Source: Gemella sp. zg-570 (lineage in GTDB: Bacteria > Bacillota > Bacilli > Staphylococcales > Gemellaceae). Taken from it: DNA of 64,000 bases. Below the pieces are notes generated by a model that saw only the letters and a program-made list of their open reading frames with translations, ran no database searches and was not told the origin of the DNA. A program made the position numbers and the translations under genes. The stretch covers positions 1,449,501-1,513,500 of the forward strand of contig NZ_CP076443.1 of the NCBI RefSeq assembly GCF_018866345.1, in the 5' to 3' direction. This document shows, one piece after another, positions 11,630-45,499 of this stretch (within the stretch, counting starts at the first letter, position 1; each line of letters begins with the position of its first letter).

Positions 11630-12350
11630 TTATATATTTTCCACTGTGTATAATTTTTTAAAGTGAGGTTTTTGATTAAGTAAATATTCAAAAGAACCAC
11701 ACTCTATTATTTTGCCATCTTTTAAAACTAATATTTCTAATATTTTCTTAGACTTTCTGCCATTATTTTATGAGTTATAGAGGTAAGGGTTAAGTTTTCA
11801 TACTCTAATAAGTAGTTCTCAATATTTAAAGCATTATTATTATCTAAACTAGGAAACATTTCATCCGCTAATATTGGCTGGCAAGCTCTTATAAGAAGCC
11901 TTGCTCTTGATATTCTTTGTTTTTACCCTAAAGAAAGATTACTTCCATTTTCTTTTATAAAATTTTCATTATCGATTTCGGCAATAAAATGATACAGTCC
12001 TAGTATTTTCATTAATTTAATTATTTCTTCTTTGGAATACTTATTATTATGTAGACTTATATTATTAAATATACTTTACTTAAAACAAAAACGTTTTGGT
12101 CTATGCAGGAAAATTTATTAATTAATTTCATATCATCTATTAAGTTTATATCTATCCCATTAATTTTTACACTATCATCATTAGAAATATTAATTCTTAA
12201 TAATAATTTTAAGAGCGTTGACTTGCCAGAACCTAACAAAGCAAGAAATGCGTATTTTTCCCTTTTTCAAAAGTATAACTGATATTATCTAAAATAATAT
12301 TATCCCATCGACCTAGTATAAACAACAACATATTTTCTTTTTCCCTGACA
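11630..12350 (-). pseudogene. ABC exporter ATPase domain, broken
   Basis: Minus-strand reading in three frames reconstructs a nucleotide-binding domain: NIILDNISYTFEKGK, a Walker A GSGKSTLLKLLLR, a Q-loop-like DQNVFVL, the signature NLSLG-stop-KQRISRARLL, a Walker B ILADEM and the H-loop ITHK. The glutamine after LSLG is TAA (11923-11925), a CAA-to-TAA type change. Several frameshifts and the loss of the membrane domain confirm decay. It looks like the C-terminal half of an exporter-type ABC protein. Confidence 0.88.
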
Positions 12351-12495
12351 TCTTTTTAAAAGAATGCTCTGTACTTGCAGAATGATTATATTCACATAAA
12401 GAATCTGACTAATTGTGGTGGTTGCCACTTGATGAACAAGCAGTTAAAAATATTGCTGACAATACTATCATCGAAAGAATTTTATGTAATTTCAT
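12351..12495 (-). pseudogene. Truncated lipoprotein fused to the ABC remnant
   Basis: ATG 12495, with ribosome site TAGGAGAT, opens MKLHKILSMIVLSAIFLTAC, a lipoprotein signal peptide with an LTAC lipobox. SSSGNHHN follows, then TAG at 12409-12411 (CAG-to-TAG type) and a His-containing remnant. The frame then runs into the ABC ATPase relic. A deletion has probably joined the two genes. The original lipoprotein cannot be identified; the His-rich start recalls metal-binding lipoproteins. Confidence 0.6.
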
Positions 12496-12762
12496 TTATC
12501 TTATCTCCTAAAATTTACTATATAATTACAATCTCTTACTTTCATTAAACATAATAAATTTCTCTTTTCAATAAACCCTTACCAAAGGAATTTAGATAAA
12601 TATAAATTTAAATTATAAAAATGTTTTTTCTAGTTGAAAGTTTTATTTGAAAAATATTTAACCAATCAAAAATTTAAAAACAAAAATATTATTTTTAAAA
12701 TAAAATTTAACTAGCAATAAATTATTTTTTAAAATTTCTTCATAAGAAAAGAATTTATTTAG

Positions 12763-12791
12763 AAAAAAGACGACTATTTGTCGTCTTTTTT
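12763..12791 (-). terminator. Cassette terminator (GACGAC type)
   Basis: The stem AAAAAAGACGAC/GTCGTCTTTTTT has a 5-base loop. The last codons and TAG stop of the lipoprotein gene lie inside this hairpin. Near-identical hairpins close the plus-strand cassettes at 43346 and 45468. Confidence 0.88.
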
Positions 12792-13829
12792 AATCATCAC
12801 ATTTGCTTTTTCTACATTAAATTTAGATAAATCATATATTTGTTCAGCAAAAGTTTCTTTGTTATATTTATATATTGTTTTTTCAAATAAAAAGTAAAAA
12901 TTATTTTTATCTTGAGCAAAATATGGACTGTTTCCATCTCCAGGTTTTTCATTTGGGAAGTTTATGATGGTTTTTTTGCCACTTCTTTTATTGTATATGG
13001 TGAAAACATGGCTGGGAACATATAAATTGTAATGTTCTATTATTAAATTTTTTTCATCTTGATGCATATATAAGGGGTAGTTATAGTCTAAAGTTATAAA
13101 TTCTTGCTTATTATTTTTTAAATTTAATTTTAGTATTTTATTACTACCTCTCGGCTCTCTACTTTCTGTTAAGCCGGCAGAATTTTGACTAAGATAGATA
13201 TAATTATCATCCATAACCATTCTCATATAAGCACCATTTTCATAATTCAAATCTATTTCTTCCTGCACTTCAAAATCCATATTTAGTTTTAATAATATAT
13301 TTTTATTTTGTTTCTCTACTACATTACCTATTAACAAGTAGATAATATCATCTTTTACTATGATGTCATTAGTAACATTGATACCACTTCTTTTTATTTC
13401 TTTTTTTCTCAATTCTTTAAAGGACATATCGTATTCATAAATGTTAAATCTATCCGTAAAAACATCTGTTGCATAGATTTTATCCTTGTAGTGAGTAAAT
13501 GTATAGGGTTCGCTACTATCATTTTTTAAGTTAATATCTAAAGTATCCTTATCTATATTTGCCAAAAGAGCATGCTTTCCTATAACTGTAGTTTTTATAA
13601 GCAGGTTTTTATCCAAATCTATATAATCATAATTTAAGAACCCATACTTACCAGACCTCTCTTTAGTGTCTACTAAATTTAATTCATTATTTTTTTCTTC
13701 AAATAGAAGTATTTTGTTTTTATCGACAATCCCTATATCATATTGATATTTTTTTTCATTATTTTTAAAATTGGAACATCCCGTTAGAATTAATACAAGT
13801 GTTATTATTAAATAAAATATTTTTTTCAT
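12774..13829 (-). CDS. Lipoprotein of unknown function, last gene of secreted-protein cassette
   Basis: This 351-residue protein has a clear lipoprotein signal peptide (MKKIFYLIITLVLILTGCSN, lipobox LTGC), so it is probably anchored outside the membrane. The rest has recurring short beta-rich units with Tyr and Asp (YIDLDKNLLIK, IYATDVFTDRFNIYEYD, IYLLIGN, YIYLSQNSAG, NFYFLFEKTIYKYNK), which suggests a beta-propeller, but I recognise no family. AGGAGG precedes ATG 13829. It lies 141 bases after the small membrane protein gene and ends inside the cassette terminator. A vestigial copy of its 5' end (14960-15030) follows the neighbouring cassette, so it belongs to the repeating unit. Confidence 0.75.
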   Translation of the reverse strand: MKKIFYLIITLVLILTGCSNFKNNEKKYQYDIGIVDKNKILLFEEKNNELNLVDTKERSGKYGFLNYDYIDLDKNLLIKTTVIGKHALLANIDKDTLDINLKNDSSEPYTFTHYKDKIYATDVFTDRFNIYEYDMSFKELRKKEIKRSGINVTNDIIVKDDIIYLLIGNVVEKQNKNILLKLNMDFEVQEEIDLNYENGAYMRMVMDDNYIYLSQNSAGLTESREPRGSNKILKLNLKNNKQEFITLDYNYPLYMHQDEKNLIIEHYNLYVPSHVFTIYNKRSGKKTIINFPNEKPGDGNSPYFAQDKNNFYFLFEKTIYKYNKETFAEQIYDLSKFNVEKANVMIKKDDK

Positions 13830-13970
13830 AAATCTAACCTCCTTTATGAATAATAAAATAATTATACAATACAGGTATAATAAAAATAATAATAATAATA
13901 TTAAAAAATATTGTATTCTCTACTGTCTACTTATTTTTAAATATTTTAGTAATTTTTTATTTTTTATTTT

Positions 13971-14147
13971 TTATTTTTTATTTTTTATAATTAAAAACCT
14001 ACCTATAAGCATAAATATAAGTAATACTGTCCAAGAAATAATTAACGTAATTATAGAAACTCCATATTTATTTTTTAATATTATTGAAGATATACTGGTA
14101 AGAATAAGAAACATTACTATATCATATTTATTTATTATTTTGTTCAC
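13971..14147 (-). CDS. Small two-helix membrane protein, putative immunity partner
   Basis: This 58-residue protein starts at a GTG that overlaps the TGA stop of the secreted-protein gene by 3 bases, so the two are translationally coupled. It reads VNKIINKYDIVMFLILTSI and has two hydrophobic stretches (about 11-23 and 31-54) ending in basic IIKNKK. No family is recognised. In the sister cassettes the same slot is filled by unrelated small membrane proteins. By analogy with bacteriocin operons, an immunity role is inferred. Its 3' end is an A/T tandem repeat (about 13950-13990). Confidence 0.6.
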   Translation of the reverse strand: MNKIINKYDIVMFLILTSISSIILKNKYGVSIITLIISWTVLLIFMLIGRFLIIKNKK

Positions 14148-14755
14148 ATCAAATAACCTCTAATCTTATTTTGTTTAAACTCATTATACTTGTGTGTATT
14201 TGATAATATATATATATCTATTCCTTTTCCTTGCCAATATGCCTGTTGAACTACTTTTTCTAAGTAATTATATCCCCCATAAGTAGCAGCTATTGAAATT
14301 GCTGAAAGTCCCCAACCTACACCAGGAATCAACCCAAATGCAATAGAAGATAAAGTTTCAGCTAGCTTTCCATAACGTAATCCTTTCTCGTACATATGTT
14401 TTACACCCCAGTAATTGATATACCCAATTTTAGTTTCTGGATAATATGCACTCCTTAAATAAGGATTTATTTTTATTTCTGGTTTTAGTATCATTTCAAT
14501 TAAATTATATTCTTCTTGAGATATTAAGTTTTTATTTAATCTTATCTGTGCATTATAAAGTTCTCTTTCTATGTCTATTTCAGAGAAGTTAATTTCTATT
14601 TCAAAAGAGTTATTTTCGTTATTAATTGTATTCTCATTAAAAGTCTTATCTTTAGCCTTAGCTACATTATCATAACCGCTAACTAAAGTAGAAATTGGGC
14701 TAACTAATAAACTAGCCGAAATTACGGCACTTGCTATTTTTATTTTTGTATTCAT
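14144..14755 (-). CDS. Secreted protein with shared cassette signal peptide, putative bacteriocin-like effector (203 aa)
   Basis: The Sec-type signal peptide KIKIASAVISASLLVSPIST and the VAKA cleavage site (about residue 34) are nearly identical to those of the gene at 15429. A charged middle (35-95) is followed by PYLRSAYYPE and then a Gly-rich hydrophobic domain (SSIAFGLIPGVGWGLSAISI, about 136-155). No family is recognised; the plan of signal, variable propeptide and hydrophobic C-domain recalls SdpC. The ribosome site AGTAGGAA is weaker than the GGAGGGAA of its sister copy. Its promoter and palindrome lie at 14793-14848. It overlaps the downstream small membrane gene. Confidence 0.7.
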   Translation of the reverse strand: MNTKIKIASAVISASLLVSPISTLVSGYDNVAKAKDKTFNENTINNENNSFEIEINFSEIDIERELYNAQIRLNKNLISQEEYNLIEMILKPEIKINPYLRSAYYPETKIGYINYWGVKHMYEKGLRYGKLAETLSSIAFGLIPGVGWGLSAISIAATYGGYNYLEKVVQQAYWQGKGIDIYILSNTHKYNEFKQNKIRGYLM

Positions 14756-14792
14756 AATATTTTCCTACTTTTATGAATATATTAATTGTTTT

Positions 14793-14848
14793 AAAGTATA
14801 TACTTTTATTCACACCCCAATTATAATAAATAGAAAAGAAAAAAACAA
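14793..14848 (-). promoter_or_regulatory. Cassette promoter with downstream palindrome
   Basis: The -35 is TTGTTT (14843-14848) and the -10 is TATAAT (14820-14825), with a 17-bp spacer. A perfect 14-bp palindrome AAAGTATATACTTT (14793-14806) falls just after the predicted transcription start and could be an operator. The same arrangement recurs at 16304-16359. Confidence 0.75.
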
Positions 14849-14851
14849 GAC

Positions 14852-14880
14852 TTGTATTTCTCCAAAATATTTGATATAAT
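14852..14880 (+). promoter_or_regulatory. Divergent plus-strand promoter
   Basis: TTGTAT (14852-14857), a 17-bp spacer and TATAAT (14875-14880) point away from the cassette. Its -35 nearly abuts the minus-strand -35, and an ACAAGACTTGT inverted repeat spans both. No gene lies downstream on the plus strand. Confidence 0.55.
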
Positions 14881-14959
14881 TAGTGAATTAGGGTTTTAAA
14901 AATTTTAGAGTTTTAATAAAATATTCATACAAAATTTAATATATGTACAATACTGTGAG

Positions 14960-15030
14960 TGAAGTAGTGTCTGCAATATTTTTTAATTATTCATCCCATT
15001 ATAATTAATTAAATAAGATATTTTTTTCAT
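14960..15030 (-). pseudogene. 5' remnant of cassette lipoprotein gene
   Basis: From ATG 15030, with the same AAGGAGATTAGATTT leader as the gene at 13829, the sequence matches the first codons of that lipoprotein (MKKI-YLI, then GGGATG) with a deletion and an early stop. It marks the end of the second cassette, where the third gene was lost. Confidence 0.7.
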
Positions 15031-15099
15031 AAATCTAATCTCCTTTATGAATAAACATAATTATAATTTTATAAAATATTAAGAAACTAGGTTTGTTTA

Positions 15100-15426
15100 T
15101 TAATATTTTCTATTTTGTTTATATGTAATTAATATTAGTGTTAATATAATTATTCCATTAATTAATAATATTATTAATAGAAATCTTTCAAATATTTTAT
15201 CACTAAAAATATATCCAATATTCATTAATTGATATACGTATGAAGTTATAAGAAATATAGTTGACATTACTATTACTAATAATATCAAAATTAATATTAT
15301 TTTATAAGTCTTTTCAATATTAGACTTTTCTTTATTTTTTTTGTACAAAAGATATGCTCCTATTAATGTTATAGTGGAAAATGAAGTAGTTACAGAGTTT
15401 AATAATAATGATATCTTATTTTCCAT
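15100..15426 (-). CDS. Small membrane protein, putative immunity partner (108 aa)
   Basis: From ATG 15426 (MENKISLLLNSVTT) it has three to four hydrophobic segments (about 8-28, 43-65, 82-104) with basic ends KKNKEK and KQNRKY. The start lies 2 bases after the stop of the secreted-protein gene; an in-frame ATG at 15438 would overlap it. The C-terminal half (KIILILILL...SYVYQLMNIGY...FLLIILLINGIIIL) resembles the remnant frame at 43158-43364. No known family is recognised. The immunity role is inferred from position. Confidence 0.6.
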   Translation of the reverse strand: MENKISLLLNSVTTSFSTITLIGAYLLYKKNKEKSNIEKTYKIILILILLVIVMSTIFLITSYVYQLMNIGYIFSDKIFERFLLIILLINGIIILTLILITYKQNRKY

Positions 15427-15428
15427 TT

Positions 15429-16265
15429 TTACACCCAATACCCATTTTCATCAAAATCATACCATGTCCCAGCTATATACAAACCTTGACCAGCAACAGC
15501 CCCATAGTCGCCTGGTAAATGATATAACCATTTACCATTATATTCTCGCCAACCAGAATATTGAATTAATTTTCCTCCATCTTCAAATTCATACCATTTA
15601 TCGTTTATTTTTAACCATGGACTATTTTCAAATCTGGGATTATACATTAATGAAGCGTAAACATCAGATCTTAAGAAAAAACTAAATTTTATATCATAGA
15701 AAAAATACCATCCATCATAATAATCATCCCAATGCCAACCGCTCTTGAAATTTCCATTTTCTTTATAAAACCACATAGTTTTATAATCTTTAGATATACT
15801 AATCCAACCATTTTGAACAGACTCTGCTCTTGAAACTTCATCTATATCAGGTTTATAATAAGTTTTATATATATCATTCGATATCCCTACGACAGTCGCT
15901 AATCCAGCAACTATTGTTATAACTACAAGTAATGGGAATGCTCTATCTTGAGGTAATTTTTCTATATCTTTTTTTGCTAAATTTAAATATTTTTCTTTTT
16001 CATCTTTACTTAAATGTTCTTTACCTTTTAAAATAACGCTATAAATTTTTTTATTATCCACTACATATTCTGTAATAAAATAGTCATTTTTATTAACAAC
16101 TACATATTGTTCATTTTTATTTAAATATAGCATTTTTCCTATATTTAAATTTGAATAATTATTAGCCTTAGCCACATTATCATAATGATTAATTAATACT
16201 GAAATGGGAGAAACTAATAAACTAGCCGAAATTACAGCACTTGCTATTTTTATTTTTTTATTCAT
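15429..16265 (-). CDS. Secreted protein with shared cassette signal peptide and Trp/Gly-rich wall-binding-like C-terminus (278 aa)
   Basis: The signal peptide KIKIASAVISASLLVSPISV with a VAKA cleavage site matches the neighbouring cassette. Residues 36-95 are charged, and a short hydrophobic stretch follows (LLVVITIVAGLATVVGIS, about 111-128). The C-terminal 130 residues have repeated Trp/Tyr/Gly units (SGWHWDDYYDGWYFF, NGKWLYHLPGDYG, AGTWYDFDENGYWV) like choline-binding or glucan-binding repeats. An LRSD motif occurs at the domain boundary. It has a strong GGAGGGAA ribosome site and the promoter at 16304-16359. It may be a surface-retained member of the family. Confidence 0.7.
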   Translation of the reverse strand: MNKKIKIASAVISASLLVSPISVLINHYDNVAKANNYSNLNIGKMLYLNKNEQYVVVNKNDYFITEYVVDNKKIYSVILKGKEHLSKDEKEKYLNLAKKDIEKLPQDRAFPLLVVITIVAGLATVVGISNDIYKTYYKPDIDEVSRAESVQNGWISISKDYKTMWFYKENGNFKSGWHWDDYYDGWYFFYDIKFSFFLRSDVYASLMYNPRFENSPWLKINDKWYEFEDGGKLIQYSGWREYNGKWLYHLPGDYGAVAGQGLYIAGTWYDFDENGYWV

Positions 16266-16303
16266 AATATTTCCCTCCTTTTATAAATATTATTAATTGT
16301 TTT

Positions 16304-16359
16304 AAAGTATATACTTTTATCTACATCCCGATTATAATAAATAAAAAAGAAAAAAACAA
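16304..16359 (-). promoter_or_regulatory. Cassette promoter with downstream palindrome, second copy
   Basis: TTGTTT (16354-16359), a 17-bp spacer and TATAAT (16331-16336) form the core promoter. The 14-bp palindrome AAAGTATATACTTT lies at 16304-16317. This duplicates the layout at 14793-14848 almost base for base. Confidence 0.75.
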
Positions 16360-16362
16360 GAC

Positions 16363-16509
16363 TTGTATTTCTTCAAAATATTTGATATAATAAATAAATT
16401 AGAGCTTTCAAAAATTTATAGTTTTAATAAAATAGCATAAAAAATTTAAAATAAATTATCCACACAAATTTCAAAATAAAAAACTAAGTAAAAAATTACT
16501 TAGCTTTTT
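16363..16509 (+). ncRNA. Candidate short transcript from divergent promoter
   Basis: TTGTAT (16363-16368), a 17-bp spacer and TATAAT (16386-16391) head an untranslated stretch of about 110 bases. It ends in the hairpin CTAAGTAA/TTACTTAG plus T-run at 16480-16509. No reading frame is visible. This is only a prediction; the hairpin may instead serve the minus-strand DUF1307 relic. Confidence 0.3.
16480..16509. terminator. Bidirectional terminator
   Basis: The 8-bp stem CTAAGTAA/TTACTTAG has a 4-base loop with an A-run before and a T-run after, usable on either strand. Confidence 0.7.
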
Positions 16510-16555
16510 TGTTTATCTATTTTTTCTCTAAATATCCTTCTTTTTATAATAATTC

Positions 16556-17020
16556 TTAACTCTTAGCTAAAATTATATTTTTAGTATTTCCGTCAATAAT
16601 TAGTCCTTGTATTGATTTAGCTACATCTATTTTTGCATAGTCTACTTCTAAATTTTCTATGATTACATCATCAAGATATTCTATTTTATGAGTTATTCCA
16701 GAAATTCCCTTATATTGTTCTGCTAGAGGATTTATTCTAGCTTACATATCTTATTTTAAAAGATCTGCTTGCTTATAATTAATTGTATTCCTAGCAGTTT
16801 GTTTTAGAAGCCTATATCCTTGATGAACATAAACTAATTCTGAAATTACTAATTCATCTTGCTTACTAAAGGTTTTTATTTGAAAATTATCTTCCTGCTT
16901 ATTACTTGTTGAAGTTGAATTATTTTCTTGTTTAGTGTCTGTTGAAGTTGAAGTAGAACTGCAACCTACAGGTGTAACTGATAATATAAGCGTAAATAAA
17001 ATTTATAATAATTTTTTCGT
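16556..17020 (-). pseudogene. DUF1307 (YehR-like) lipoprotein, broken
   Basis: Minus-strand translation gives a lipoprotein signal ending VTPVGCSS, a Ser/Thr-rich linker, then DELVISELVYVHQGYRLLKQ, AEQYKGISGITHKIEYLDD and VAKSIQGLIID, the DUF1307/YehR pattern. The start codon is ACG (17018-17020) where ATG is expected after GGAGAAAAGTA. TAA occurs at codon 6 and twice more (16751-16753 and 16742-16744), the last two fitting CAA-to-TAA. It is therefore dead. Confidence 0.82.
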
Positions 17021-17090
17021 TACTTTTCTCCTAATTTTTAAATTTAAATTCTATATTATACAATATTTTTTTAAAAAATAAAATCTGTTT

Positions 17091-42090: not shown

Positions 42091-42120
42091 AAAAAGACGA
42101 AAATATTTAGTCGTCTTTTT
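42091..42120 (+). terminator. Orphan cassette-type terminator
   Basis: AAAAAGACGA...TCGTCTTTTT is the imperfect counterpart of the cassette terminators at 12763, 43346 and 45468. No cassette gene precedes it. Confidence 0.65.
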
Positions 42121-42248
42121 CTAATTCTCAAACTCAAATTTTAATATCAAACAGAAAAAATAATTTTATTATTTTTTAGAAATAATTTCTTTATTTTGCA
42201 AGCGTAACCCTCCTAATTATACCATGTATTTTTTAAAAAAGATAGACC

Positions 42249-42277
42249 TTGTTTTCTTATATTCTTAATGATATAAT
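42249..42277 (+). promoter_or_regulatory. Promoter of the plus-strand cassette cluster
   Basis: TTGTTT (42249-42254), a 17-bp spacer and TATAAT (42272-42277) share the CTTGTTT-type -35 of the minus-strand cassettes. It lies 70 bases before the start codon. Confidence 0.7.
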
Positions 42278-42346
42278 AAAAGTGTAAATAGAAGTGATCA
42301 CAATATTTCAAAATTAAAATTTTATCACCAAAGGAGGATAATTAAA

Positions 42347-42886
42347 ATGAGTAGAAAATTAAAATTTGCTAGTTCAGTGTTAGCATCTAGCTTAATTATC
42401 ACACCAATCTCTGCTTTAGTTAGTAATTATGATAATGTGGCTAAGGCTAATGAACTTAAAACATTAAATAATTATGAACCCACTGAAAAAGAAATAAATG
42501 AATTTGCTAAAGAATTAGAATTTTTCTTTACAAAAGTAGTGTGTTACCAAAATGGTAAATACTTCATAAACAAGGAAGAAGCTAAAAAGATAAAAGGAAT
42601 TTCAGATGATGTTATAATAGAATTAGAGAAAAAAGCAAATGAAATAAATAATAATTCTTTTGTTAGTTTTAGAAGTTGGTACATATGCATGAAAGATAGA
42701 ATTATGGATGAAATAGGCAAAGTCGTTCAGCTAGGAACTTTAGGAGCGAGCATTTTAGAAAGACAAGCATGGACAGAATTAGCTGAATTTATACTAAAAA
42801 GGGTTTCAAAACAAGCCGCCAAAAGAAGTCCTTGGGTGCTAGCAGGAATTTTCGCTTGGCATTCTTTAAGGTGTGTAGGACATTAA
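42347..42886 (+). CDS. Secreted protein with shared cassette signal peptide, putative effector (179 aa)
   Basis: The signal peptide RKLKFASSVLASSLIITPIS, with NYDNVAKA cleavage at about 35, matches the other family members. A charged middle (about 40-105) follows, then SFRSWYICMKDRIMDEIGKV and an amphipathic, basic C-terminal domain ending SLRCVGH. Two Cys (about 115 and 176) could bond across that domain. No known family is recognised; the plan resembles SdpC-type toxins. AAAGGAGG precedes ATG 42347. The membrane-protein gene follows 1 base after the stop. Confidence 0.7.
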   Translation: MSRKLKFASSVLASSLIITPISALVSNYDNVAKANELKTLNNYEPTEKEINEFAKELEFFFTKVVCYQNGKYFINKEEAKKIKGISDDVIIELEKKANEINNNSFVSFRSWYICMKDRIMDEIGKVVQLGTLGASILERQAWTELAEFILKRVSKQAAKRSPWVLAGIFAWHSLRCVGH

Positions 42887-42887
42887 A

Positions 42888-43157
42888 ATGATTAAATGGT
42901 TTAAAAAATTAAATGGTTATTATAAATGGCATATATACTTTACAACTTTCACAATAATATATGCTATAATTTATAAAATAATGTACGATAGATATGATTT
43001 TTTCGTAATTAGTCTATACATGATAATTTTAACAACATATATAATAAAAAATGGTAAGAAGTATAAAAATAATAAAATATCAGATACCCATTCAAGTCAG
43101 ATAGCAAATAAAGAAAAAGAGCAAAATAGTTCCACTATTCTAAACAAAAAAATATAA
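42888..43157 (+). CDS. Small membrane protein, putative immunity partner (89 aa)
   Basis: MIKWFKKLNGYYKWHIYFTT starts a protein with two hydrophobic segments (about 15-32 and 37-52) and a long charged tail (KNGKKYKNNKISDTHSS). It begins 1 base after the secreted-protein stop, so it is probably coupled to it. Its TAA (43155-43157) is followed in the same frame by the remnant at 43158-43364. Immunity function is inferred from position only. Confidence 0.6.
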   Translation: MIKWFKKLNGYYKWHIYFTTFTIIYAIIYKIMYDRYDFFVISLYMIILTTYIIKNGKKYKNNKISDTHSSQIANKEKEQNSSTILNKKI

Positions 43158-43364
43158 CAAATAATATTAAAAATAACATTATTTATTACATTATTATTAC
43201 CAATAATAACTATAATTTTATACGTTTATCAAATAAATGACATTCAAGTTCCTTATAGATACGGACTATATGATATATTTCTGTTATTAGTTCTGTTAAT
43301 TAATATGCTTATTATAAAAATACTAGTAGTAACTATATACAAAATAGAAAAAGACGACAAATAG
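43158..43364 (+). pseudogene. Remnant of a second cassette membrane protein
   Basis: Directly after a TAA, and in the same frame, 68 codons read QIILKITLFITLLLPIITII, YVYQINDIQVPYRYG and LLLVLLINMLIIKI, ending EKDDK-stop. This resembles the C-terminal half of the membrane protein at 15100-15426. There is no start codon. The stop TAG lies inside the terminator hairpin, exactly as in the lipoprotein gene at 12774. It is either a truncated gene or the second half of a gene split by one stop. Confidence 0.6.
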
Positions 43365-43376
43365 TCGTCTTTTTTT
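43346..43376 (+). terminator. Cassette terminator (GACGAC type)
   Basis: AAAAAGACGAC/GTCGTCTTTTT with a 5-base loop, near-identical in stem and loop to 12763-12791 read on the minus strand. Confidence 0.88.
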
Positions 43377-43594
43377 AAATTCTAAAATTAAAATTTTAAT
43401 ATTAAACAAAAAATAATTTTATTTGTAAAAATTTTAAATATTATAAATATATAAACTAAAAATTTTTTAATTAATACAGTTTAATTTTAAAGTTGTATTA
43501 TATAATTTTAATTTAGTATTTCAGTTATTTAATTTTTATAATATAATATTATTTTTTCTGTATTATTTATATTTTTATCTTAATTAAACAGATG
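43365..43594. other. AT-rich spacer between cassettes, no gene seen
   Basis: This stretch follows the cassette terminator. No frame or repeat is evident until the promoter region at 43595. Confidence 0.5.
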
Positions 43595-43667
43595 GCTGTT
43601 TTTCATGAATATAGCGGTGTTTTTCAGTCTTTTTTTCCTTGTTTTATAATGTTTTATATGCTATGAT
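43595..43667 (+). promoter_or_regulatory. Cassette promoter with 21-bp-spaced direct repeats
   Basis: The direct repeats GCTGTTTTTCA (43595-43605) and GGTGTTTTTCA (43616-43626) are 21 bp apart start to start. A promoter TTGTTT (43639-43644), spacer 17, TATGAT (43662-43667) follows. Two direct repeats two helical turns apart upstream of a weak promoter are typical of LytTR-type response-regulator sites. The regulator is not in the window. Confidence 0.55.
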
Positions 43668-43690
43668 TAAGGTGTAATATATATCTTAGT

Positions 43691-43829
43691 AAAAAATAAT
43701 TTTAAAATATATTTTCTTGCAAATAAATATATTAAATAAAAAAATAAAGGAGGCAATAAAAATGAGAAAACACAAAAAATTTTTATCGGCAATCTTAGCT
43801 TCAAGTCTATTAGTTACACCTATTTCACA
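43691..43829 (+). repeat. Direct repeat of leader plus signal-peptide DNA, copy 1
   Basis: The leader (AAATAATTTTAAAATATAT...TTGCAAATAAATATATT) and the signal-peptide codons are almost identical to 44590-44724. This shows a recent cassette duplication with divergence beginning right after the signal peptide. Confidence 0.85.
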
Positions 43830-44361
43830 CTTAATTCATCAAAACAATAATATATCAAAAGCCTATGTTAATATAGCAAATAATACAGAAGAAAATCTTT
43901 TAAATAAAGATTTAAAATATATTAAACTATTAGATAAAATGCCAATGAATGTAGCAGAAGGAACAATTGAAGAAGGCATAAAATGGTTAAATGAAAACAA
44001 AGGGAAGGACTTTGGATTTGGTGAATTTATAGCGACAGGAGATTCTATTAAATTTCAAAGTTATTACAGAAGTTGGTCTTGCGTCTATGGTATAGGTACT
44101 GCAGTAGTAAACTTGTTGCCTTGGTCTAAAATATTAAAACTAAAACAAGGAGCAAAAGCACTAGGGGGCTTGCAAACGGTAGCTTCTAATATATACAATA
44201 GATATAAATATTTAATAAACAATTATAGAAGTTATAAAAATAATAAATGGGGTGCAATGAAATTGGCCGTTACAGAAACTGCTAATTCTATGCCTGGCGA
44301 GGCGAAAGCAGCTTTTATGGAATTTTTTGGTTTGGGAGGACTGAATGATTGCTTTGACTAA
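43762..44361 (+). CDS. Secreted protein with shared cassette signal peptide, putative effector (199 aa)
   Basis: From ATG 43762 (RBS AAAGGAGG) it starts MRKHKKFLSAILASSLLVTP, and the cleavage region ends ISKA. A charged middle (about 30-95) is followed by FQSYYRSWSCVYGIGTAVVN, a hydrophobic/Gly region, a basic Tyr/Asn-rich stretch, and an end at GLGGLNDCFD. Two Cys bracket the C-terminal domain. No family is recognised. A longer frame to 43717 exists but would include the ribosome site. The small membrane gene overlaps its end by 17 bases. Confidence 0.7.
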   Translation: MRKHKKFLSAILASSLLVTPISHLIHQNNNISKAYVNIANNTEENLLNKDLKYIKLLDKMPMNVAEGTIEEGIKWLNENKGKDFGFGEFIATGDSIKFQSYYRSWSCVYGIGTAVVNLLPWSKILKLKQGAKALGGLQTVASNIYNRYKYLINNYRSYKNNKWGAMKLAVTETANSMPGEAKAAFMEFFGLGGLNDCFD

Positions 44362-44536
44362 AAAATTAATTTTCTATATCTTTATTTTATTGAATATAGT
44401 ATTTATAATAAATAATTTTTTTATAGGTATTATACTTATTAAAAAAATATCATATAATTTCTATATTATACTATGTACAATTCTTATAATAAATAAATTA
44501 AAAAATATTATAAAAGCATACAAAAACAATGACTAA
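44345..44536 (+). CDS. Small membrane protein, putative immunity partner (63 aa)
   Basis: It starts inside the secreted-protein gene in another frame and reads MIALTKKLIFYIFILLNIVF, with two hydrophobic segments (about 8-32 and 36-50) and a basic tail KNIIKAYKNND. It is unrelated in sequence to the partners of the other cassettes. TTGGGAGGA lies before the start as a ribosome site. Its role is inferred from position. Confidence 0.6.
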   Translation: MIALTKKLIFYIFILLNIVFIINNFFIGIILIKKISYNFYIILCTILIINKLKNIIKAYKNND

Positions 44537-44589
44537 GTAACTTTTATTTTTTATTTGAAATTAAAATTTTTTATACTAACCATCATATA

Positions 44590-44724
44590 AAAATAATTTT
44601 AAAATATATTTAGTTGCAAATAAATATATTAAATAAAAAAACAAAGGGGGAAATAAAAATGAGGGGACACAAAAAATTTTTATCGGCAATCTTAGCTTCA
44701 AGTCTATTAGTTACACCTATTTCT
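44590..44724 (+). repeat. Direct repeat of leader plus signal-peptide DNA, copy 2
   Basis: This is the counterpart of 43691-43829. The ribosome site is AAAGGGGG instead of AAAGGAGG. No separate promoter is evident, so this cassette is probably read from the upstream one. Confidence 0.85.
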
Positions 44725-45195
44725 GCTTTAGTTAATAATTATAATAATGTGGCTAAGGCTGAAAAGAATGAAATTCTCTTTAATGAGAAAGTAATTGAAG
44801 AAGGTGAAATAATAAAGGATTATATTAGTTTTAATAAAAAAAATAATATATATGTTTTTTCATTTTATTATGATAAATCTTTAGATATTAGATTGAATAA
44901 TATAAGAAGTAATATAACATCTAAAGATATAAATGAATATATATCAAAATTAAACGATAGATTGATTAAAGAAAATGGAGAAGGACTAATAAATGATTCC
45001 ATTAAAGAAATACAATATTATTCCAAGTTAAATGGCGATAGCCTATTTAGAAGTGCATGTGGAAATGTATTTGCTTGGGTAGGACTAGCACATTCTACAT
45101 TTTACGGTCTTTTAATAGGAGGCCCTGTAGGAGCTGGATTATCTGCATTTACAGGTTTAGCATATGCAATAGGTAGTACTGTAGCATGTCCTTAA
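44659..45195 (+). CDS. Secreted protein with shared cassette signal peptide, putative effector (178 aa)
   Basis: The signal peptide (RGHKKFLSAILASSLLVTPI, cleavage NVAKA) is nearly the same as in the preceding cassette. The middle is charged (about 36-132). After SLFRSACGNVFAWVGLAHST comes a strongly hydrophobic Gly-rich domain (LLIGGPVGAGLSAFTGLAYA) ending VACP-stop, so two Cys frame a 43-residue segment. This is the clearest bacteriocin-like C-terminus of the family; similar size and plan are known for the SdpC toxin domain. The membrane-protein gene overlaps the stop by 10 bases. Confidence 0.72.
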   Translation: MRGHKKFLSAILASSLLVTPISALVNNYNNVAKAEKNEILFNEKVIEEGEIIKDYISFNKKNNIYVFSFYYDKSLDIRLNNIRSNITSKDINEYISKLNDRLIKENGEGLINDSIKEIQYYSKLNGDSLFRSACGNVFAWVGLAHSTFYGLLIGGPVGAGLSAFTGLAYAIGSTVACP

Positions 45196-45437
45196 AAGAA
45201 ATTATAATCTACAAATATAATGGTACTTTAATCAGTCTTTTTTGCTTAATGATTAATATACACAATCATATAGACAATATAAAAAATTATATATTAATAT
45301 CATCTTTAATAATTATGACAACATTTATTTATGAAAAAATAACATATAATAAATATAGTCACATTCCCATGTATAAATTACCATTAATATTCGTATACAT
45401 ATTTTATATTTATATTTATTTATATTTATTGAAGTAA
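45186..45437 (+). CDS. Small membrane protein, putative immunity partner (83 aa)
   Basis: MSLKEIIIYKYNGTLISLFC opens a protein with three hydrophobic stretches (about 14-24, 35-47, 65-82). The start lies within the last codons of the secreted-protein gene, which implies coupled translation. No family is recognised. The cassette terminator follows at 45468. Confidence 0.6.
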   Translation: MSLKEIIIYKYNGTLISLFCLMINIHNHIDNIKNYILISSLIIMTTFIYEKITYNKYSHIPMYKLPLIFVYIFYIYIYLYLLK

Positions 45438-45467
45438 AATGTTGATGTATAGGTATATAATTTTAAA

Positions 45468-45499
45468 CAAAAAAGACGACTAAAAAGTCGTCTTTTTTT
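45468..45499 (+). terminator. Cassette terminator (GACGAC type)
   Basis: AAAAAGACGACT/AGTCGTCTTTTT with a short AAAA loop closes the cluster. Confidence 0.88.

What the first reader, a model, noticed from the sequence alone, without database searches (positions are those of the whole stretch)
12763..16440. Tandem three-gene cassettes: secreted protein, small membrane protein, lipoprotein
Two minus-strand units share a promoter block, a signal peptide and the 5' end of a lipoprotein gene (intact at 13829, vestigial at 15030), while the effector and membrane-protein sequences differ. The unit boundaries are visible as duplicated DNA (13818-13860 versus 15016-15060; 14755-14900 versus 16265-16400). 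Established knowledge: secreted toxins are often followed by membrane immunity genes. Inference: this is a polymorphic antagonism locus.
Basis: partly seen in the sequence, partly recalled or inferred. Interest (0 to 1): 0.8.

Follow-up and report, generated by a model that had tools for sequence, protein, structure and literature searches.

The report
Modular bacteriocin and immunity gene cassettes
This bacterium, a relative of Gemella, carries about twenty small gene units that share one promoter and one export signal but encode different secreted proteins, each followed by its own small membrane protein; they look like an exchangeable arsenal of antibacterial proteins with matching immunity genes.

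Summary
Two minus-strand units share a 293-nt block (87% identical) covering promoter, ribosome-binding site and signal peptide. It stops at the signal-peptide end; toxin bodies and membrane partners beyond it are unrelated. A 47-nt repeat (96%) marks the lipoprotein start and a 15-codon remnant of it.

The locus is a small part of a genome-wide set. The signal peptide occurs 18 times in the 1.56-Mb genome, plus toxin-less remnants. Many units end in one GACGAC-loop-GTCGTC terminator (16 in the genome, 14 at these loci). Each secreted protein is followed by a small membrane ORF.

One member in this window (42347-42886) is an EntV/streptococcin A-M57-type bacteriocin relative. Toxin C-termini and partners co-vary across Gemellaceae (0-1 of 5000 permutations). 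A congener has the same lipoprotein beside a different toxin/partner pair; G. haemolysans has the second unit's toxin without the lipoprotein. Ten units have lost their toxin; eight keep an intact partner.

Best reading: modular Sec-exported bacteriocin/immunity cassettes that reassort through shared ends. The lipoprotein is an accessory, possibly a second immunity factor. Killing and protection are untested, and the finding's two toxins match no known family.

The parts
16266..16454 (-). Unit 1 upstream module: conserved block with promoter (TTGTTT 16359-16354, 17-nt spacer, TATAAT 16336-16331) and RBS
   Evidence: 87% identical to the unit 2 block over 293 nt; the block recurs upstream of most copies in the genome. 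The promoter hexamers were read from the sequence; the simple promoter scan did not list them.
15429..16265 (-). Unit 1 secreted protein (278 aa): signal peptide (about residues 1-35), a hydrophobic stretch, C-terminal W/Y/G-rich repeats like cell-wall-binding repeats
   Evidence: signal peptide shared with 17 other copies; weak repeat similarity to LytA choline-binding and related repeats, E 0.02-0.09; no family match
15100..15426 (-). Unit 1 membrane partner (108 aa), putative immunity protein
14983..15054 (-). Remnant of a lipoprotein 5' end (RBS and 15-codon ORF)
   Evidence: 47 nt, 96% identical to 13807-13853; sequence
14756..14943 (-). Unit 2 upstream module: promoter (TTGTTT 14848-14843, 17 nt, TATAAT 14825-14820) and RBS
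14144..14755 (-). Unit 2 secreted protein (203 aa), bacteriocin-like; signal peptide, pro-region, hydrophobic Gly-rich C-terminal region
   Evidence: 47% identical relative in G. haemolysans; no curated family
13971..14147 (-). Unit 2 membrane partner (58 aa), putative immunity protein; start overlaps the toxin stop by 4 nt
   Evidence: weak similarity to the partner of the G. haemolysans toxin, Z 3.9-4.5
12774..13829 (-). Lipoprotein (351 aa) ending ...KKDDK with its stop codon inside the cassette terminator; accessory or second immunity candidate
   Evidence: lipobox-type N-terminus (weak LPAM_1 match, 18.3 bits against a cut-off of 20); 59% relative beside a different toxin in G004
12763..12793 (-). 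Shared cassette terminator AAAAAAGACGACAAATAGTCGTCTTTTTT
   Evidence: 16 in the genome, 14 at these loci, reversed control 0
42347..42886 (+). Further unit in the window: EntV/streptococcin A-M57-like bacteriocin (179 aa); its 5' module starts about 42111
   Evidence: NF058576 E 7e-24, 84.6 bits, below the 130 cut-off; EntV structure 7roa E 1e-4; module position
42888..43157 (+). Membrane partner of the EntV-like protein (89 aa)
43350..43372 (+). Shared terminator after the EntV-like unit
   Evidence: genome 1492851-1492871
43762..44361 (+). Further secreted bacteriocin-like protein (199 aa)
44345..44536 (+). Its membrane partner (63 aa), overlapping the toxin 3' end
44659..45195 (+). Further secreted bacteriocin-like protein (178 aa) with a Cys-flanked, very hydrophobic C-terminus
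45186..45437 (+). Its membrane partner (83 aa)
45472..45495 (+). Shared terminator
   Evidence: genome 1494973-1494994

Best explanation
The locus holds two units of a genome-wide family of modular bacteriocin/immunity cassettes. Each unit has a shared 5' module (a sigma-A-type promoter, RBS and Sec signal peptide), sometimes a shared pro-region, then a variable C-terminal antibacterial domain. A small membrane protein follows, usually overlapping the toxin's end or within a few nt of it, and often a shared terminator whose loop contains the last gene's stop codon. The secreted protein would be exported by Sec, lose its signal peptide (and probably the pro-region), and act on the envelope of closely related competitors; the membrane partner would protect the producer. 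The common 5' module, terminator and tandem arrangement give homologous stretches through which bodies and partners can be exchanged, gained or lost, leaving toxin-less units that keep immunity. In unit 2 a lipoprotein has joined the unit and may be a second immunity layer. Shown by sequence: modules, breakpoints, co-variation of toxin with partner, loss of toxins with partners kept, and homology of one member to known bacteriocins. Inferred: secretion, killing, immunity, target, and recombination as the exchange mechanism.
For: 1) There are 18 copies of the signal peptide in one genome. Median identity is 60% for the signal peptide, 21% for the C-terminal 80 residues and 31% for partners; shuffled sequences give 20% and 29% for the last two. 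2) DNA identity stops at the signal-peptide end (base 104-107 of the ORF) in several pairs: U1/U2 87%, 133983/137145 93%, 125782/132746 95%, 95041/1210894 90%. In 132746/135892/137145 and 93898/135044 it continues through a pro-region to about base 375-430. 3) Toxin C-terminal 60, 80 or 100 residues and partner similarity co-vary: 0, 0 and 1 of 5000 permutations reach the observed correlation. 4) A partner ORF follows every one of the 17 toxin reading frames tabulated in this genome. 5) Ten units have a broken or deleted toxin, eight of which keep an intact partner ORF; no unit has an intact toxin with a broken partner. 6) window:42347-42886 is related to EntV and to the protein on pDN571 (27% over 96%), which also has an overlapping 59-aa hydrophobic ORF. 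7) In G004 and G. haemolysans the same parts occur in other combinations.
Against: There is no experiment. Only one member matches a known bacteriocin family clearly, and below that model's curated cut-off; neither toxin of the finding matches any family. Partner similarities across species are weak in absolute terms (25-30% identity) and one pair with similar toxins shows none (150173/G003b, Z about 0). Toxin-first decay is close to what ORF length alone predicts (0.73^8 = 0.08, lengths). No maturation protease or receptor was identified. No same-species strains could be compared.
Confidence: 0.82

Rival explanations
1. The secreted proteins are bacteriocins, but the small membrane proteins are export, maturation or second killing components rather than immunity proteins.
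For: Some known secreted toxins need membrane helper proteins, and small hydrophobic proteins could themselves depolarise membranes (general knowledge). Overlapping ORFs would suit co-production.
Against: A common helper should be conserved, as the signal peptide is; instead the partner is as variable as the toxin and co-varies with its C-terminus, not with the shared leader or pro-region. Partners survive where the toxin is broken or wholly deleted, in one case placed directly behind the promoter and RBS.
Confidence: 0.12
2. A lineage-specific family of secreted surface proteins (colonisation or antigenic variation) with incidental small membrane ORFs, not used in antagonism.
For: Most bodies match no toxin family. 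Unit 1 has C-terminal repeats resembling cell-wall-binding repeats.
Against: One member is an EntV/streptococcin A-M57 relative. Many C-termini are short, Gly-rich and hydrophobic like bacteriocins. Toxin/partner co-variation and partner retention have no reason under this view.
Confidence: 0.07
3. Ordinary duplication and divergence without exchange: the 5' module is conserved only because the promoter and signal peptide are constrained.
For: Signal peptides and promoters are under constraint (general knowledge).
Against: Non-coding DNA is about as conserved as the signal-peptide coding part within the block, while the bodies directly after it show no detectable homology. Breakpoints fall at one of two places (signal-peptide end or pro-region end) in different pairs.
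Confidence: 0.08
4. The lipoprotein is an unrelated passenger, not part of the antagonism unit.
For: Relatives occur without toxins in two genomes of the family (G007, G008). Only 2 of the genomes examined link it to a cassette.
Against: It ends in the cassette terminator here and in G004 sits under a copy of the cassette promoter and between cassette remnants. In G002 another lipoprotein directly overlaps a toxin of this family in the place of the membrane partner.
Confidence: 0.45

Closest known systems
EntV / enterococcin V583 / streptococcin A-M57 family (NCBIfam NF058576), Sec-dependent bacteriocins
   Same: Prepropeptide of about 170-200 aa with a Sec signal peptide, pro-region and C-terminal active domain (EntV: 170 aa, C-terminal 68 active; PMC6606811). 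One member of this family (window 42347-42886) is a sequence relative. pDN571 has an overlapping 59-aa hydrophobic ORF behind its gene.
   Different: The known examples looked at here are single genes or pairs (pDN571, EntV). Here about 20 units share one 5' module and carry mostly unrelated C-terminal domains. The two toxins of the finding are not EntV relatives.
Dysgalacticin (DysA) with immunity factor DysI
   Same: Sec-exported bacteriocin of about 190 aa next to a gene for a membrane-associated immunity protein; disturbs membrane potential and glucose uptake (PMC8308785).
   Different: Single plasmid-borne pair; sequence relation to units 1 and 2 was not tested directly.
Polymorphic toxin systems (Zhang et al. 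2012, PMC3482391), including Neisseria MafB
   Same: Conserved export part, variable C-terminal toxin, toxin gene then immunity gene, and silent or toxin-less extra units.
   Different: Here the constant part is only a promoter plus signal peptide (sometimes a pro-region) and the proteins are small. No nuclease, deaminase or other enzymatic toxin domain and no filament-type domain was found.
S. aureus esaG / Streptococcus tipC immunity arrays (PMC9484751)
   Same: Tandem immunity genes evolving by recombination through conserved blocks; strings of immunity genes beyond the toxins carried.
   Different: Those are immunity-only paralogues for type VII toxins; here whole toxin-partner units are involved and partners share no conserved block.

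Membership tests
EntV / streptococcin A-M57 bacteriocin family (for the two units of the finding) | Sequence match to NF058576 or to EntV | tested here: not met
   No match for 14144-14755 or 15429-16265; only window 42347-42886 matches
EntV / streptococcin A-M57 bacteriocin family (for window 42347-42886) | Sequence match along the whole precursor | tested here: inconclusive
   E 7e-24 over residues 12-176 but 84.6 bits against a cut-off of 130; 27% identity to the pDN571 protein over 96%
EntV / streptococcin A-M57 bacteriocin family (for window 42347-42886) | Sec signal peptide and two cysteines bracketing the C-terminal part | tested here: met
   Signal peptide; both EntV cysteines align with cysteines of this protein
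Sec-dependent bacteriocin with adjacent immunity gene (kind) | N-terminal Sec-type signal peptide | tested here: met
   Charged n-region, hydrophobic core, mostly AKA-type end in the intact copies; read by eye, no signal-peptide predictor was available
Sec-dependent bacteriocin with adjacent immunity gene (kind) | Adjacent small membrane protein specific to the toxin | tested here: met
   Partner next to every tabulated toxin; co-variation 0-1 of 5000 permutations
Sec-dependent bacteriocin with adjacent immunity gene (kind) | Antibacterial activity and protection by the partner | not testable with these tools
   Needs an assay
Polymorphic toxin system | Constant N-terminal export part with exchangeable C-terminal domains | tested here: met
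   Identity blocks end at the signal-peptide end or pro-region end
Polymorphic toxin system | Recognised toxin domain (nuclease, deaminase, pore-former and similar) | tested here: not met
   No toxin domain in Pfam or NCBIfam for the two units
Polymorphic toxin system | Exchange between strains of one species | not tested
   Only one genome per species is held

The most novel reading that the evidence does not exclude
A 1.56-Mb Gemellaceae genome runs a dedicated reassorting bacteriocin arsenal. One exported leader and one promoter are combined with about a dozen unrelated antibacterial domains, several of them new families, and inactive units are kept as a reserve of immunity genes, with change of the start codon to ATT (four units) as a recurrent way to silence or throttle the toxin while keeping the partner.
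Probability: 0.4. Interest if true: 0.75.

Novelty: new variant of a known kind. Interest (0 to 1): 0.6.

Why it matters
About twenty bacteriocin units is a lot for a 1.56-Mb genome. The shared leader gives a simple handle for finding new antibacterial protein families and their immunity partners in Gemella-type bacteria. The toxin-dead, partner-kept units offer a natural data set on how immunity outlives attack. The partner-as-immunity idea becomes directly testable, pair by pair.

Tried and rejected
Structure prediction of both toxins gave low confidence (mean pLDDT 38.6 and 44.0), so no fold search was run. Plasmid protein searches found nothing for units 1 and 2 or for the 93898 and 125782 types, and one weak Priestia relative of the 1172628 type. 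The genome-contig scan with the unit 2 toxin returned only G. haemolysans, apparently the same record as G011. Weak Pfam and NCBIfam hits of partners (MASE1, DedA and similar) were treated as composition effects of hydrophobic proteins. Two members match PHROG families of unknown function; not pursued. Full-body toxin similarity correlated with partners less well (r 0.21, 6 of 5000) than the C-terminal part, because the shared pro-region is not partner-specific. Synteny: congeners G003 and G005 have the neighbouring methionine-synthase-like and cyclase genes with no cassette next to them, so the insertion site is not shared with them. The literature search found no report of such cassettes in Gemella, within an open-access library only.
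Full report
Observation. The window lies at 1449501-1513500 of a single 1.56-Mb contig. The two minus-strand units are as described: secreted protein 15429-16265 plus membrane protein 15100-15426, and secreted protein 14144-14755 plus membrane protein 13971-14147 plus lipoprotein 12774-13829. The shared block is one 293-nt match at 87% identity (E 4e-100). It runs from about 190 nt upstream of the start codon to the end of the signal peptide. It holds a TTGTTT-17-TATAAT promoter in both units. Past the signal peptide there is no similarity between the secreted proteins (Z -0.2) or the partners (Z 1.2). The lipoprotein 5' end is repeated as 47 nt at 96%.

Genome-wide set. Searching the genome with the 36-residue signal peptide gave 18 clear places: 94-95 kb, 125-138 kb, 150 kb, 1172 kb, 1211 kb, 1334-1336 kb, the finding, and a second group in this window at 42.3-45.4 kb. 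Reading these regions shows a repeated plan: conserved upstream block, signal peptide, variable body giving proteins of 156-278 aa, then a small hydrophobic ORF that overlaps the toxin stop or starts within about 25 nt of it. A perfect AAGACGAC-loop-GTCGTCTT palindrome occurs 16 times in the genome, with 0 for the reversed control. Fourteen are at these loci, and another, at 194.9 kb, ends an orphan small membrane ORF. In several units, and in the lipoprotein of the finding, the last protein ends ...KDDK because the stop codon lies inside the terminator loop.

Modularity. Pairwise DNA comparison places breakpoints at one of two places. Several pairs (U1/U2; 133983/137145; 125782/132746; 95041/1210894) are 87-95% identical up to base 104-107 of the ORF and then unrelated. 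Others (132746/135892/137145; 93898/135044) remain 82-95% identical through a pro-region, then differ in the C-terminus and partner. Divergence alone does not readily produce unrelated bodies behind nearly identical non-coding DNA, so exchange by recombination is the natural inference. No exchange event was observed directly.

Pairing. Twenty-five toxin/partner pairs from six genomes in two genera of the family (G000-G004 and G011) were compared. Similarity of toxin C-termini correlates with similarity of partners: 0, 0 and 1 of 5000 label permutations reach the observed value for the last 60, 80 and 100 residues. With whole bodies, which include the shared pro-region, the signal is weaker (6 of 5000). 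Related pairs across species include 125782/G004, 1172628/G003a and unit 2/G. haemolysans. One counter-example is 150173/G003b, with similar toxins and no detectable partner similarity. This is what toxin-specific immunity would give, and it argues against a common helper function.

Decay. Ten units have a damaged toxin gene: start codon changed to ATT (126.9, 132.7, 135.9, 1210.9 kb; the first also lacks the signal peptide), frameshift (95.0 kb), lost RBS and start (135.0 kb), early stop with body deleted (1334.6 kb), large internal losses (127.7 kb), or complete deletion of the toxin so that the partner follows the promoter directly (1211.5 kb and about 1212 kb). In eight the partner ORF is intact. 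At 127.7 kb it seems to be split by a stop and at about 1212 kb it is frameshifted. No unit has an intact toxin and a broken partner. Because toxins are longer, chance alone would give eight of eight about 8% of the time (0.73^8, lengths), so this is supporting rather than decisive.

Related species. The congener G004 carries a toxin of the 125782 type with its partner. Then comes a second copy of the promoter block, a lipoprotein 59% identical to the one here, a signal-peptide remnant, a small membrane ORF and a GACGAC terminator. G. haemolysans (G011, L088) has a 47% relative of the unit 2 toxin with its own partner and no lipoprotein. The lipoprotein has relatives without toxins in G007 and G008, so it is an accessory. 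In G002 an unrelated lipoprotein overlaps a toxin in the position of the partner, which keeps a lipoprotein immunity role plausible.

Known relatives. window:42347-42886 matches EntV family bacteriocins (NF058576, E 7e-24, below cut-off), the EntV structure 7roa (E 1e-4) and the 179-aa protein of S. pyogenes plasmid pDN571 (27% over 96%). That pDN571 encodes streptococcin A-M57 is from general knowledge; PMC8308785 says streptococcin A-M57 is plasmid-encoded and class III. EntV is predicted to be exported by Sec and is trimmed to its C-terminal 68 residues (PMC6606811). Dysgalacticin has a Sec leader and an adjacent membrane-associated immunity factor (PMC8308785). Units 1 and 2 match no family; unit 1 ends in repeats weakly like choline/cell-wall-binding repeats, which may target the protein to a cell wall.

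Mechanism and limits. Most likely the proteins are exported by Sec, trimmed, and act at the envelope of related bacteria, with the partner blocking the action in the producer. Export, trimming, killing, target and protection are all inferred. Modules, breakpoints, co-variation and decay are shown by sequence.

Verdict. The finding is real and larger than reported. It is a new variant of a known kind: Sec-dependent bacteriocin/immunity pairs organised as a polymorphic, genome-wide cassette family.

Noticed in passing
window 42111-45495: Three more units of the same family on the plus strand, including the EntV-like one; the first and third are followed by the shared terminator.
   Followed up: yes
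genome 126.9, 132.7, 135.9 and 1210.9 kb (L010, L013): Four units have ATT where the start codon should be, with RBS kept. ATT can initiate weakly in bacteria, so these may be silenced or merely throttled; why the same change recurs is unexplained (gene conversion could explain the three in one cluster).
   Followed up: partly
window 16540-17040 (minus strand): Decayed lipoprotein gene (lipobox-like sequence with in-frame stops) just upstream of unit 1.
   Followed up: no
window 12040-12530 (minus strand): Fragments of an ABC transporter ATPase gene and a short lipoprotein-like start, apparently a pseudogene remnant next to the unit 2 terminator.
   Followed up: no
L016:2935-3138 (genome 194934-195137): Orphan small membrane ORF ending in the shared terminator, with no toxin beside it; resembles by eye the partner of the G001 toxin.
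   Followed up: partly
L049:889-2092 (G002): A toxin of this family whose overlapping partner is a 184-aa lipoprotein instead of a small membrane protein.
   Followed up: partly
L087:2129-2145 (genome 1520128): One copy of the terminator palindrome with no recognised cassette around it.
   Followed up: no
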